Assembly (NCBI RefSeq): GCF_000314855.2 | Contig: NZ_KB233225.1 | Coordinates: forward strand, 62,001-126,000 | From: Providencia burhodogranariea DSM 19968 | Lineage (GTDB): Bacteria; Pseudomonadota; Gammaproteobacteria; Enterobacterales; Enterobacteriaceae | Reading direction: 5' to 3' | DNA length: 64,000 nucleotides | Shown: positions 25,569 through 28,727 of the stretch, in pieces | Numbering within the stretch: the first letter of the stretch is position 1 | Layout of the letters: each line of letters starts with the position of its first letter | Position numbers and translations under genes: made by a program | Notes under the pieces: generated by a model | Databases searched by the model: none | The model's input: only the letters and a program-made list of their open reading frames with translations | Told to the model about the DNA's origin: nothing

Positions 25569-26060
25569 TTATTTTACTGAGATAGAAGATGTTTCTAATT
25601 TTGTTATTTCTGTTTTTTTCTGTGTAAGCTCTTTTTTCACATCATTAGGTTGTATTTTTTTATCTGTTCTTTCTGATGAACCAGTAAATATACCGCCTTT
25701 TTTAATCGTTAAGTTTTTAGTTTGGCAAATACCATCTAATTGGCCATTCTCTAAAATATCAAGATTTTCAGAAACGCATAATCCTTGCACTTTACCGTTG
25801 ATTGATATGGTTTGCGCATGAATTTCACCTTCTATAACGCCTTCTTTTTCAATTGTTACTTTACCATTATTGCTACGGATACTCCCTTTTATATAGCCAA
25901 AAACATTAATGTCATCATCGAGAATAAAATCCCCAGAAATATTACAGCTGTTTGAAATTGAAGTGGTTTTATGAGTATTGGATAATGGAGTTAATTTTTC
26001 TTCTTTAGATAAAATAGCTTCTTTTTTAGCTATTGCTGCATCGTTTTTTTCAAGTTCCAT
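25569..26060 (-). CDS. Bactofilin (CcmA-like polymer-forming protein)
   Basis: A 163-aa protein with a central beta-helical bactofilin domain (residues about 38-130): repeated short strands such as ISGDFILDDDINVFGYIKGSI, VTIEKEGVIEGEIHAQTI and ISINGKVQGLCV. Bactofilins assemble into filaments that shape the cell; Proteus mirabilis CcmA (curved cell morphology) is the closest case I know and is membrane-associated. Here the ATG overlaps the stop of the upstream 61-aa membrane ORF as TAATG and has no Shine-Dalgarno sequence in front of it (only AAAAACAATTTA). An A8 run allows -1 frameshifting that would fuse the two. N- and C-termini are charged and probably disordered. Confidence 0.85.
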   Translation of the reverse strand: MELEKNDAAIAKKEAILSKEEKLTPLSNTHKTTSISNSCNISGDFILDDDINVFGYIKGSIRSNNGKVTIEKEGVIEGEIHAQTISINGKVQGLCVSENLDILENGQLDGICQTKNLTIKKGGIFTGSSERTDKKIQPNDVKKELTQKKTEITKLETSSISVK

Positions 26061-26245
26061 TAAATTGTTTTTATTTTTTTTGTAAACATCCGTTTATTCC
26101 TTGTTGAGAGTATGTAAAAAATAATAAAGAATATGATTAAGAATGGCAAAAACACAATTGAAGAGTAATAATCTGTTAATGTGTAAATTAAAATGTATGC
26201 CCAACCACATCCTAGAATAGAAAAAAATAAATTATTTAAATTCAT
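26060..26245 (-). CDS. Small two-helix membrane protein, probable N-terminal part of the bactofilin
   Basis: A 61-aa ORF with two hydrophobic helices (residues about 4-22 and 28-47) and a basic tail RNKRMFTKKIKTI. AGGATAGGAT lies just before the ATG. Codons 55-57 run ACA-AAA-AAA followed by ATA, which is the slippery heptamer A-AAA-AAA in the correct register; a -1 shift leads through NKNNL straight into the bactofilin ATG, giving a membrane-anchored 225-aa fusion. Without a shift the ORF stops five codons after the run. It could also be a sequencing or true single-base indel. Confidence 0.7.
   Translation of the reverse strand: MNLNNLFFSILGCGWAYILIYTLTDYYSSIVFLPFLIIFFIIFYILSTRNKRMFTKKIKTI
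26075..26081 (-). other. Putative -1 ribosomal frameshift site (A-AAA-AAA)
   Basis: Read on the minus strand, the 0-frame codons are ACA AAA AAA ATA. The seven A bases from 26081 down to 26075 fit the X-XXY-YYZ rule, and the next A makes an A8 run that would also permit transcriptional slippage. GGA triplets lie 7 and about 16 bases upstream and could act as internal Shine-Dalgarno stimulators. I see no clear downstream hairpin. Confidence 0.55.
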
Positions 26246-26813
26246 ATCCTATCCTATTTTAAAGGCTTTTTTGATTGTTCCAAATACGATTTATATCATT
26301 AAATCTGTATTAAAATTTATTCAATTTATGATATGAAAAAATTTAAGAGAACTATAAGTCATATATCCATAAAAAATCTTAAAGTAATAATGATTATAGT
26401 GATATAGCTAGCTGAAAGTAATCAAAAACTATGCATCTTGAATATATGATAAGGATGTTATTTAACAGTAAATATGAATGTTTGTCCATATTACACTTAA
26501 CTAATACGGCGCTTTCTGGCATATAAGCCATTTATAGGCGAGACTAATTAGGGGGATGCGATATCAAGTTGTATGAGAAGCACCAGAGTTCGGATTACAC
26601 CTCTTGTCCTCTTTTTTCATCTGAACATTTACACTTGGCATCTAAACTAAATATAAATAACCTTGTAAGTAAATGTATTTAACTACTTGTTTTTATTTTT
26701 ATTTTTATCATTTCTGTTTATGGGATTGTTTCTTACATTCAACTCGAATTATTTCAGGTATAGTTATAAAGTTAAACAATTCAGAGCACAGCAGGAATAG
26801 GGAAATATTAAGT
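26246..26813. other. Intergenic region upstream of slt and the bactofilin locus
   Basis: About 570 bp with no gene. Bases 26727-26766 resemble a lone ERIC right end (CTCGAATTATTTCAGGTATAG). An in-frame extension of slt covers 26673-26813 but reads like non-coding sequence. Nothing else could be identified. Confidence 0.4.
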
Positions 26814-28727
26814 ATGAAAAAATTCTTGGTGGCAGTTCCGATTGCCATGATGTTGATATCTACCACGGTATGGGCAGATTCTTTACAAGCTCAACGTGAG
26901 CGCTACCAAGCAATTAAGCAAGCTTGGGACGCAAAGCAAATGGATGAAGTAGAGCGTTTACTGCCTACATTACAAGAGTATCCATTATATCCTTATTTAG
27001 AGTACCGAGAACTCACTCAAGATCTCGATATTATTTCACCAAGCCAAGTGCAAACATTTATTGATGCTCATCCAACATTACCAGTTGCGAAAACGCTAAA
27101 AACACGATTTGTGAATGAATTAGCACGTCGTCAAGAGTGGAAGTCATTATTAGCTTTCAGCCCTGAGGTACCAAAGCCTGCTGAAGCACAATGTAATTAT
27201 TATTATGCGAATTGGGCTACGGGAAACAAAACTCTTGCATGGCAAGGTGCTGAGAAGTCTTGGCTTAATGGACGCTCGATGCCAGAAGCGTGTGACAAAT
27301 TATTTAATGAATGGGAAAAAGCGGGATATTTAACACCTGAAATGATCCTTGAGCGGATCCATCTTGCTATCGATGCGGGCAATACATCAATAGCGGCATA
27401 TCTCGCTAAGCGTTTACCGCCAAATTATAAAACCATCGGTGATGCATTAGTTAAGCTGCAAAATGATCCCGCGTCAGTGACCAATTTTGCGAAAACAATG
27501 ACGCCAACAGATTTTTCACGGCAAGCAACATTGGCAGCATTTAGCCGTTATGCTCGACAATCACCGGATGAAGCTCGCGCAGCGCTAAAAAGTATCAGCA
27601 GCACACAGAAAATGAATATCGCTGAAACCCAAAAAATGAAAGACAGCATCGCTTGGCAGTATATGGGGGACGTCACTCCAGAACAGGCAAACTGGCGTGA
27701 TGAAGTGATTGGAGAGACGGATTCAACGACCTTAAAAGAACGTCGAGTGCGTTTGGCTTTGGGGTTAGGGGATAAAAAAGGTGTTTCAGTGTGGTTGAAG
27801 CAACTTCCTGATGATGCTAAGAATAAAGAAGAATGGCAATATTGGCAGGCGATCACTTTGCTTGATGAAGGTAGAAAAGCTGAAGGTGAAGCGATATTAC
27901 ATAAGCTCATGAATGGACGTGGCTTCTATCCAATGGTCGCCGCACAAAAACTGAACATAGAATATCCTCTGTACATTAAAGCCGCCGACAAACCGGACAA
28001 TAGCATTGATAAAATGGCTGAGATACAGCGTGTTCGTGAATTGATGTATTGGGAAATGGATAATCTCGCGCGCACTGAGTGGGTAAGTTTGGTTGCTTCA
28101 TTGCCTACCAATCAACAAGAGAAGTTAGCGCGTTACGCATTTGATCACAATTGGGCTGATTTAAGTGTGCAAGCGACGATCACGGCTAAATTATGGAATC
28201 ACTTAGAAGAGCGTTTTCCATTAGCGTGGGAAAAAGAATTTGAACGTTATATTAAAGATAAATCCATCACAAAAAGCTATGCGATGGCAATCGCACGCCA
28301 AGAAAGCGCATGGAATCCACAAGCTCGTTCACCAGTTGGGGCTACGGGACTCATGCAGCTGATGCCAGCAACAGCGAAACACACGGCCCAAAAACAAGGG
28401 ATTAGTGATTATGTTAATGTCAGCCAATTAACTAATCCAACCAAAAATATTGAGATTGGTACGGCTTACTTGGATGATGTTTATCAGCAATTTTCAAATA
28501 ACCGAATTTTATCCAGTGCTGCATATAATGCGGGCCCATCACGGGTGAATCGTTGGTTAGGCAATAGTGGTGGACGTATAGATGCAGTGGCTTTTGTTGA
28601 AAGCATTCCATTTTCGGAAACCAGAGGTTATGTGAAAAACGTTCTTTCTTATGATGTATTCTATCGCTATTTTATGGGGCAAAATGGTCCTGTTCTAAGC
28701 GATAATGAATGGTTAATGAAGTATTAA
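26814..28727 (+). CDS. slt: Soluble lytic murein transglycosylase
   Basis: Periplasmic exo-acting peptidoglycan lytic transglycosylase producing 1,6-anhydromuropeptides; 637 aa (E. coli Slt70 645). A signal peptide (residues 1-22, ending VWA-DS) is followed by the alpha-superhelical U-domain and the C-terminal lysozyme-like domain. The catalytic glutamate is in ARQESAWNPQARSPVGATG, followed by LMQLMPATA; YNAGPSRVNRW is the conserved third motif. I start at ATG 26814 because only then does a signal peptide begin the protein. trpR follows as in E. coli. Confidence 0.95.
   Translation: MKKFLVAVPIAMMLISTTVWADSLQAQRERYQAIKQAWDAKQMDEVERLLPTLQEYPLYPYLEYRELTQDLDIISPSQVQTFIDAHPTLPVAKTLKTRFVNELARRQEWKSLLAFSPEVPKPAEAQCNYYYANWATGNKTLAWQGAEKSWLNGRSMPEACDKLFNEWEKAGYLTPEMILERIHLAIDAGNTSIAAYLAKRLPPNYKTIGDALVKLQNDPASVTNFAKTMTPTDFSRQATLAAFSRYARQSPDEARAALKSISSTQKMNIAETQKMKDSIAWQYMGDVTPEQANWRDEVIGETDSTTLKERRVRLALGLGDKKGVSVWLKQLPDDAKNKEEWQYWQAITLLDEGRKAEGEAILHKLMNGRGFYPMVAAQKLNIEYPLYIKAADKPDNSIDKMAEIQRVRELMYWEMDNLARTEWVSLVASLPTNQQEKLARYAFDHNWADLSVQATITAKLWNHLEERFPLAWEKEFERYIKDKSITKSYAMAIARQESAWNPQARSPVGATGLMQLMPATAKHTAQKQGISDYVNVSQLTNPTKNIEIGTAYLDDVYQQFSNNRILSSAAYNAGPSRVNRWLGNSGGRIDAVAFVESIPFSETRGYVKNVLSYDVFYRYFMGQNGPVLSDNEWLMKY

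What the first reader, a model, noticed from the sequence alone, without database searches (positions are those of the whole stretch)
25569..26245. Membrane-anchored bactofilin possibly made by programmed -1 frameshifting at A-AAA-AAA
A 61-aa two-helix ORF ends in a TAATG overlap with a bactofilin ORF. Just before its stop the 0-frame codons ACA AAA AAA place a slippery heptamer at 26081-26075. A -1 shift reads AAT AAA AAC AAT TTA and enters the bactofilin ATG in frame, giving a 225-aa protein with two membrane helices. The bactofilin ATG has no Shine-Dalgarno sequence of its own, which fits dependence on the upstream ORF. From memory, Proteus mirabilis CcmA is membrane-associated and occurs in long and short forms; here one locus could supply both forms by recoding. 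A8/A9 slippage could also make it phase-variable.
Basis: partly seen in the sequence, partly recalled or inferred. Interest (0 to 1): 0.8.

Follow-up and report, generated by a model that had tools for sequence, protein, structure and literature searches.

The report
Split bactofilin gene with internal start
The gene for a membrane-anchored cell-shape filament protein is cut in two by a one-base shift at a run of A's in this one genome, and comparing relatives suggests that such genes normally make two membrane-bound forms from two start codons rather than by frameshifting.

Summary
In detail: a 61-aa hydrophobic ORF, an A8 run with an in-frame A-AAA-AAA, a TAATG overlap and a bactofilin ORF. 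Programmed -1 frameshifting is not supported. The 22 other Providencia genomes with a match (of 23 searched) carry one continuous ORF, including five orthologues at the same ettA-slt locus; no stimulatory RNA structure was found. The split is most likely a lineage-specific frame lesion at a lysine-coding A-run, possibly leaky; a sequencing error is not excluded. Unexpected was how the two forms probably arise. Five bases before the A-run lies an in-frame ATG with a good Shine-Dalgarno site. MF or M-x-x-F stands at this place in 96 of 101 homologues with a detected hydrophobic segment (6 of 675 control windows). The Shine-Dalgarno match beats the mean of synonymous shuffles in 96 of 99 genes (49 of 52 genera), against 40% and 36% at control Mets. 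It coincides with the published N-terminus (MFSRKTE) of the Proteus mirabilis short form, described in print as proteolytic. Two starts, not recoding, probably supply the two forms; the lesion lies behind both.

The parts
26060..26245 (-). ORF1, 61 aa: the hydrophobic N-terminal membrane anchor (two helices by eye) plus the first residues of the membrane-targeting peptide; in relatives it is the N-terminus of the continuous bactofilin ORF
   Evidence: aligns with the N-terminal part of L003-L007; own start duplex energy -4.0
26098..26102 (-). AAGGA, Shine-Dalgarno site of the internal start, 8 nt before the ATG (inferred function)
   Evidence: duplex energy -5.4; the codons ACA AGG AAT AAA are identical in the five intact orthologues and the same in the window
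26087..26089 (-). internal ATG, start of the short form that in the five orthologues begins M-F-(T/S/A)-K-K (inferred)
   Evidence: same place as the published MFSRKTE N-terminus of the P. mirabilis short form (homologues L122 and L130)
26074..26081 (-). A8 run where the reading frame is lost; first 7 A are the in-frame A AAA AAA heptamer
   Evidence: the five orthologues have A7-A9 here in an unbroken frame
26058..26062 (-). TAATG: stop of ORF1 overlapping the ATG of the 163-aa ORF; possible termination-reinitiation
   Evidence: the ATG is not conserved in relatives
25569..26060 (-). bactofilin ORF, 163 aa, PF04519 domain, without anchor or membrane-targeting peptide

Best explanation
This is the Providencia orthologue of ccmA, a bactofilin with an N-terminal transmembrane anchor. 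In its relatives the gene is one ORF read from two starts. The first start gives the full-length, integral form. An internal ATG right after the second hydrophobic helix, with its own Shine-Dalgarno site, gives a short form beginning with the membrane-targeting peptide MF-x-KK. In this genome the frame is shifted by one base in the lysine-coding A-run just behind the internal ATG, so ribosomes from both starts stop at the TAA overlapping the ATG at 26060. The 163-aa core can then be made only by weak reinitiation, without either membrane anchor. A minor amount of anchored product may arise by RNA polymerase or ribosome slippage on A8. Shown by sequence: the split, its restriction to this genome among the Providencia genomes searched, the conserved Met-Phe and the Shine-Dalgarno excess. 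Inferred: that the internal start is used, that the lesion is a real and unprogrammed mutation, and how much leaks.
For: One continuous ORF in the 22 other Providencia genomes with a match, of 23 others searched. Neighbours slt and ettA shared with all five close orthologues. In 223 genes shared with the nearest relative (about 91% DNA identity) this is the only clear frame break on the window's side, and that relative has two of its own, so breaks are sporadic and this contig is not full of homopolymer errors. No RNA structure. MF or M-x-x-F after the hydrophobic segment in 96 of 101 homologues, against 6 of 675 control windows in the same proteins; any Met in 99 of 101 against 274 of 675; the two without a Met come from 0.7-Mb genomes. 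Shine-Dalgarno energy there -4.95 against -2.10 for within-gene synonymous shuffles, stronger than the shuffle mean in 96 of 99 genes and 49 of 52 genera (sign test 1e-11), against 40% of 300 other Mets in the same genes and 36% of 515 post-helix Mets in two genomes. Synonymous codons fixed in 5 of 5 upstream positions against 44 of 126 elsewhere in five orthologues (Fisher 0.006). In other families of the order, 39 of 41 bactofilins show no such anchor by my reading, and several carry the equivalent peptide as their probable N-terminus. Published short-form N-terminus MFSRKTE.
Against: No other strain of this species and no reads were available, so a sequencing error or a polymorphism cannot be excluded; only 378.6 kb of 4.58 Mb was checked for other breaks. 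Selection on the window's branch looks like that on its sister branch (C part 14 synonymous and 13 nonsynonymous, against 15 and 10, 19 unresolved), so the core still seems constrained, or the lesion is very recent. One gene of another genus (G210, L099) has a break at nearly the same place, also a -1 relation, which could hint at something other than accident. Only 17 of 99 internal Shine-Dalgarno sites reach p<0.05 singly. Four genes have no site at all (L110, L111, L114, L117, +0.6, though still below their shuffle mean) and three are no better than their shuffle mean (L068, L075, L078). The second Providencia type has weaker sites (-3.4 to -3.9) and no significant codon fixation (2 of 4 against 20 of 88, p 0.24). 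Even in the orthologues 7 of 127 contiguous codon stretches are as fixed as the one upstream of the internal Met.
Confidence: 0.6

Rival explanations
1. Programmed -1 ribosomal frameshifting at A AAA AAA makes a fused 225-aa membrane bactofilin alongside the split products.
For: The heptamer is in the right frame and the -1 frame enters the bactofilin ORF. A Shine-Dalgarno site lies 16 nt upstream of it and could act as a weak stimulator.
Against: Split absent in the 22 other Providencia genomes with a match. No downstream structure. A review states that in E. [quoted passage not shown] Little truncated product from ribosome sliding was seen with A9 or A10 in vitro (PMC4363877, passage).
Confidence: 0.05
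2. Slippage of RNA polymerase (or leaky ribosomes) on A8 supplies enough frame-correct product for the gene to work, a tolerated or rescued frame lesion like tssM1 of Citrobacter rodentium.
For: Precedent in another enterobacterium: an A11 run rescues tssM1 at about 20% (PMC4256274, passages). A8 is suggested to be productive in some IS elements, and human apoB A8 gives about a tenth full-length product (PMC1088944, passages). The core still looks constrained.
Against: Selection against A-runs is evident at nine in a large proportion of bacterial genomes (PMC1088944), so A8 may slip little in this host. No conserved arrangement. Three residue changes at the anchor's N-terminus, which is invariant in the five orthologues (MDFKN, here MNLNN).
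Confidence: 0.15
3. Sequencing or assembly error at a homopolymer: the strain really has an unbroken gene.
For: The 22 relatives are unbroken and the break lies exactly in a homopolymer.
Against: Only one clear break in 223 shared genes on a contig with 51 A/T runs of 8 and 5 of 9, so no general homopolymer problem is seen there. The ORF2 ATG is also absent from the five orthologues.
Confidence: 0.2
4. Phase-variable (contingency) switch: the run length flips between generations and turns both membrane forms on and off together.
For: Run length differs among orthologues (A7 to A9) and the tract sits directly behind both starts.
Against: All five orthologues are in the unbroken state. No within-species data. 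Short A-runs are ordinary here.
Confidence: 0.07
5. Two genuine, separately useful proteins: a small membrane protein and a soluble bactofilin coupled by TAATG.
For: TAATG overlap; both parts have dN/dS well below 1 against the nearest relative (0.27 and 0.13).
Against: That constraint may mostly predate the split. The coupling ATG is absent in the five orthologues and has no Shine-Dalgarno site (+1.6).
Confidence: 0.08

Closest known systems
CcmA of Proteus mirabilis (bactofilin with N-terminal transmembrane segments)
   Same: Bactofilin domain, hydrophobic N-terminus, membrane-targeting peptide starting with Met-Phe right after it; known to exist as an integral long and a peripheral short form (PMC12448750, passage; two forms also in PMC6590870, passage)
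   Different: In the window the frame is broken behind both starts; the P. mirabilis short form has been ascribed in print to proteolysis, whereas the sequences here argue for an internal start
tssM1 of Citrobacter rodentium
   Same: Chromosomal gene interrupted in frame behind a poly-A run, where slippage could restore the product
   Different: A11 with measured slippage of about 20% (PMC4256274, passages), against A8 here with nothing measured
E. coli dnaX -1 frameshift cassette
   Same: A-rich heptamer with a Shine-Dalgarno-like site upstream (recalled for dnaX)
   Different: A_AAA_AAG (PMC5009743, passage) and a conserved stem-loop (recalled) there; here A_AAA_AAA, no stem-loop beyond shuffles, not conserved

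Membership tests
Bactofilin (PF04519) | Bactofilin beta-helix domain over the curated cut-off | tested here: met
   72.6 bits against 27.9, E 3.2e-20
Transmembrane bactofilins (CcmA type) | N-terminal transmembrane anchor in the same ORF as the domain | tested here: not met
   In the window the hydrophobic part is in a separate ORF; same ORF in the five orthologues at the same locus
Transmembrane bactofilins (CcmA type) | Met-Phe membrane-targeting peptide after the second helix | tested here: met
   RMFTKK in ORF1; MF or M-x-x-F at this place in 96 of 101 homologues with a detected hydrophobic segment
Programmed -1 ribosomal frameshift | In-frame slippery heptamer X XXY YYZ | tested here: met
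   A AAA AAA at 26081-26075
Programmed -1 ribosomal frameshift | Stimulatory downstream structure or upstream Shine-Dalgarno at suitable distance | tested here: inconclusive
   No structure beyond shuffles; AAGGA 16 nt upstream, explained better as an internal start site
Programmed -1 ribosomal frameshift | Conservation of the split and the slippery site in relatives | tested here: not met
   0 of 22 other Providencia genomes with a match are split
Programmed -1 ribosomal frameshift | Fused product detected | not testable with these tools
   No proteomics
Transcriptional slippage site | A or T run long enough to slip in this host | tested here: inconclusive
   A8; selection is evident at nine in many genomes, but the length varies between bacteria (PMC1088944, passages)
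Dual-start gene (internal in-frame initiation) | Conserved internal ATG with Shine-Dalgarno site beyond codon chance | tested here: met
   As a family: 96 of 99 genes and 49 of 52 genera stronger than the mean of synonymous shuffles; controls 40% and 36%. Singly only 17 of 99 reach p<0.05
Dual-start gene (internal in-frame initiation) | Short product shown to begin with the initiator Met of that codon | not tested
   Only a literature passage: the P. mirabilis short form begins MFSRKTE; the original paper is not held

The most novel reading that the evidence does not exclude
In this lineage the A-run directly behind a dual start has become a slippage-set valve. Both membrane-anchored forms of the bactofilin (integral and peripheral) are made only through slippage or run-length change at one tract, while TAATG reinitiation keeps up an unanchored 163-aa filament pool. 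One homopolymer would then set the ratio of membrane-bound to free bactofilin.
Probability: 0.1. Interest if true: 0.75.

Novelty: new variant of a known kind. Interest (0 to 1): 0.42.

Why it matters
The split itself is probably an ordinary lesion in one genome. What it uncovered makes an older question testable: how CcmA of P. mirabilis, called the first discovered bactofilin (PMC6590870, passage), comes in an integral and a peripheral form. The sequences suggest that a transmembrane anchor was added upstream of an ancestral start and that this start, with its ribosome-binding site, has been kept by selection across about fifty genera. Many bactofilin genes of this family would then each encode two proteins with two modes of membrane binding, one of them easily missed by annotation.

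Tried and rejected
Programmed frameshifting was tested by conservation, RNA folding and literature on the heptamer, and rejected as the main explanation. A generally error-ridden assembly was tested on one contig against 400 kb of the nearest relative and found unlikely; a single error remains possible. Relaxed selection on the broken gene was tested by assigning changes to branches: no clear difference, few changes. The thought that the Shine-Dalgarno excess is a codon effect after any transmembrane helix was tested on 515 Mets of ORFs with hydrophobic segments and rejected; these come from two related genomes, so many are orthologous pairs, and G018's own bactofilin was not taken out. Looking for further split bactofilins in the family gave three in other genera: G210 (frame lost in the linker shortly after the internal ATG), G263 (frame lost before the internal ATG, short form left whole) and G049 (in-frame TAG in the linker). 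G184's match covers only positions 1-65 of the domain model. The 84-aa second 'break' is a mechanical ORF that I did not take for a gene; of the two other multi-frame hits of that direction one is a paralogue pair and one a break on the relative's side.

Rows dropped before counts: of the places, 13 weak ones (E 2.3e-5 or worse) were not fetched, and L093 and L094 were left out as duplicates of loci already held. In one search four of 105 entries had no hydrophobic segment in the domain's frame (L002, L098, L099, L100) and two had no Met (L104, L147), leaving 99. Some genomes in the 105 are near-identical (for example L021 and L022), which is why 'one per genus' is also given; it takes the first listed gene of each genus. 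For the codon test of the second Providencia type L012 and L022 were dropped. The hydrophobic segment is a simple Kyte-Doolittle window, not a helix predictor. The start codon was chosen by a simple rule (last Met before the domain followed by F, L or G, otherwise the last Met), so its mean energy is rough.

Literature: the 1999 paper on CcmA is not held; what is said of it comes from passages of later papers. No paper was read whole: from those cited I saw passages only. Searches for bactofilin with Shine-Dalgarno (3 papers), with isoform (7), with internal plus start codon plus transmembrane (4), with Providencia (1), and the six terms (403 papers hold two or more; one listed) showed in their listings no title or abstract start proposing an internal start for transmembrane bactofilins. 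That covers only the held library.

Full report
What is there. On the minus strand of the window a 61-aa hydrophobic ORF (26245-26060; two helices by eye) ends in TAATG, overlapping a 163-aa ORF (26060-25569). The latter is a bactofilin (PF04519, 72.6 bits) and the only match in the genome. An A8 run at 26081-26074 holds the in-frame heptamer A AAA AAA. The bactofilin ATG has no Shine-Dalgarno match (+1.6 kcal/mol), while the ORF1 start has one (-4.0). The neighbours are an ABC-F-like ATPase (ettA-like; the name is recalled) on the same strand downstream, a DUF1622 protein, and a lytic transglycosylase (SLT domains; slt), transcribed divergently.

Is the split a conserved device? No. Of 24 genomes of the genus (own included), 23 have a match and one (G006) has none. 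In the 22 others with a match the bactofilin lies in one open frame of 221-239 codons, with a hydrophobic N-terminus. Five of these (L003-L007, 69-84% identical) lie at the same place between ettA and slt and are orthologues. The seventeen others are a divergent type (27-36% identity) without these neighbours in the 1.5 kb fetched on each side. At the A-run the five orthologues show A7 to A9, in differing contexts, always within one frame. The window is out of register by one base at this place. The ATG of the downstream ORF is not conserved either: the five have ATA, GTC, ATT or ATC there. RNA folding downstream of, and around, the run is no better than in shuffles (z -0.79 and -0.26).

Is it a sequencing artefact? 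The contig of the window (378.6 kb of a 4.58-Mb genome) was compared with 400 kb of the closest relative, G018, whose contig has the same length as the named P. alcalifaciens BIGb0506 record; long matches average 90.8% DNA identity. Among 223 shared genes the bactofilin is the only clear frame break on the window's side; an 84-aa mechanical ORF is the other multi-frame hit. The relative has two apparent breaks of its own in the reverse comparison of 224. The contig holds 51 A/T runs of exactly 8 and five of 9, so homopolymer errors are not general there. A single error is not excluded, because neither reads nor a second isolate were available. The contig has three stretches of N whose nature I do not know.

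What the A-run is. It codes for the lysines of a short basic peptide, MFTKK, immediately after the second helix. Among 99 homologues, 12 have at least 8 A in the 33 nt from that Met. The peptide explains the run. It looks like the bactofilin membrane-targeting sequence: a survey of 14,337 bactofilins without predicted transmembrane helices gives the consensus N-terminus MFSKKKK (PMC12448750, passage).

The internal start. The same paper says that P. mirabilis CcmA exists as an integral full-length form and a shorter, peripheral form whose N-terminus is MFSRKTE, and calls this proteolytic processing (passage). Two homologues of one unnamed genus in my set (L122, L130) read ...AMFSRKTE... at exactly this place. 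I therefore asked whether that Met is a start codon. From 246 genomes of the family, 82 had a PF04519 match. With the genus set, and without duplicates and 13 weak places, 105 bactofilin frames were examined. Four, the window and three other broken genes, had no hydrophobic segment in the domain's frame. Of the 101 others, 99 have a Met in the 34 positions around the end of the last hydrophobic segment, and 96 have MF or M-x-x-F there. In 675 control windows of the same length further along the same proteins, 274 have a Met and 6 have MF or M-x-x-F. The two without a Met come from 0.7-Mb genomes of one genus.

For those 99 I computed the pairing energy of the bases from -20 to -5 with the 16S tail and compared it with shuffles of synonymous codons within the same gene. 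Mean -4.95 against -2.10; stronger than the shuffle mean in 96 of 99 genes, and in 49 of 52 when one gene per genus is taken (sign test 1.0e-11). Controls: 300 other Mets in the same genes, -2.38 against -2.35 with 40% stronger; 515 Mets just after hydrophobic segments in ORFs of two genomes, -1.62 against -1.73 with 36% stronger. The commonest arrangement is AAGGA 8 nt before the ATG (9 of 52 genera; median spacing of the best cores 8, 38 of 49 within 4-12 nt, three genera with none), which is the window's own arrangement (-5.4). Single genes are weak evidence: only 17 of 99 reach p<0.05; four (L110, L111, L114, L117) have no site, and three (L068, L075, L078) are no better than their shuffle mean.

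Further support comes from codon conservation. In the five intact orthologues all 5 amino-acid-invariant degenerate codons in the six before the internal Met are fixed, including AGG for arginine, against 44 of 126 elsewhere (Fisher 0.006), though 7 of 127 contiguous stretches are as fixed. In 15 genes of the divergent type the difference is not significant (2 of 4 against 20 of 88, p 0.24), although the two lysines there are always AAA-AAG. Of 41 bactofilins from other families of the order, 39 show no such anchor by my reading; the probable start, chosen by a simple rule, has a mean energy of -5.9, and several carry the equivalent peptide there (for example MFNNKKK, MFTQKKD). The simplest history is that an anchor was added in front of an ancestral start and the start was kept.

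How the window's allele most likely works. The frame is lost in the run that begins five bases behind the internal ATG, so products of both starts end at the same stop: the 61-aa protein and a 9-aa peptide MFTKKIKTI (read from ORF1). Ribosomes stopping at TAATG may reinitiate and make a 163-aa bactofilin without either membrane anchor. Whether a little anchored product is still made depends on slippage. In C. rodentium an A11 run gives about 20% (PMC4256274, passages). Selection against A-runs is evident at nine in a large proportion of genomes, with a suggestion of productive slippage at eight in some IS elements (PMC1088944, passages). Ribosome sliding gave little truncated product at A9-A10 in vitro (PMC4363877, passage). 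[quoted passage not shown] coli (PMC5009743, passage). I expect leakage to be low. On the window's branch the core shows 14 synonymous and 13 nonsynonymous changes against 15 and 10 on the sister branch (19 unresolved), and the anchor 6 and 6 against 1 and 1 (1 unresolved). The lesion is thus recent, or the core is still used.

Other breaks of this gene. Three more were found in the family sample: in G210 (L099) the domain's frame opens only 8 bases after the A of the internal ATG and in another frame; G263 (L100) loses the frame before the internal ATG, leaving the short form whole with AAAGGGA upstream of its ATG; G049 (L098) has an in-frame TAG in the linker. Together with a genome lacking the gene (G006), this suggests a gene that is lost or broken now and then. 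G263 is what one would expect if the short form can stand alone.

Verdict. Observation confirmed. Programmed frameshifting is not supported; the split is probably a lineage-specific lesion. The side result, a conserved internal start in transmembrane bactofilins, is well supported by sequence (my estimate about 0.85 that it is used), and the listings on the held library did not show it proposed. The original 1999 paper could not be read and may already have considered it.

Noticed in passing
L008-L024 (17 other Providencia genomes): A divergent bactofilin type (27-36% identity to the window's) without ettA or slt within 1.5 kb, so Providencia seems to have two bactofilin lineages at different places.
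   Followed up: partly
L104 and L147 (two 0.7-Mb genomes of one genus): The only homologues with a hydrophobic segment but no Met behind it; reduced genomes that may have given up the short form.
   Followed up: no
L098, L099, L100: Three other genera with broken bactofilin genes: in-frame TAG in the linker, frame loss shortly after the internal ATG, and frame loss just before the internal ATG.
   Followed up: partly
window 26673-28727 (+): A lytic transglycosylase gene (SLT domains) is transcribed divergently from the bactofilin, and this pairing is kept in all five close orthologues; bactofilins elsewhere are thought to organise cell-wall enzymes (PMC5502672, passage).
   Followed up: partly
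G018 (L048-L067 stretch): The relative has two apparently split genes of its own (homologues of a 520-aa and a 268-aa ORF in the window's contig).
   Followed up: no
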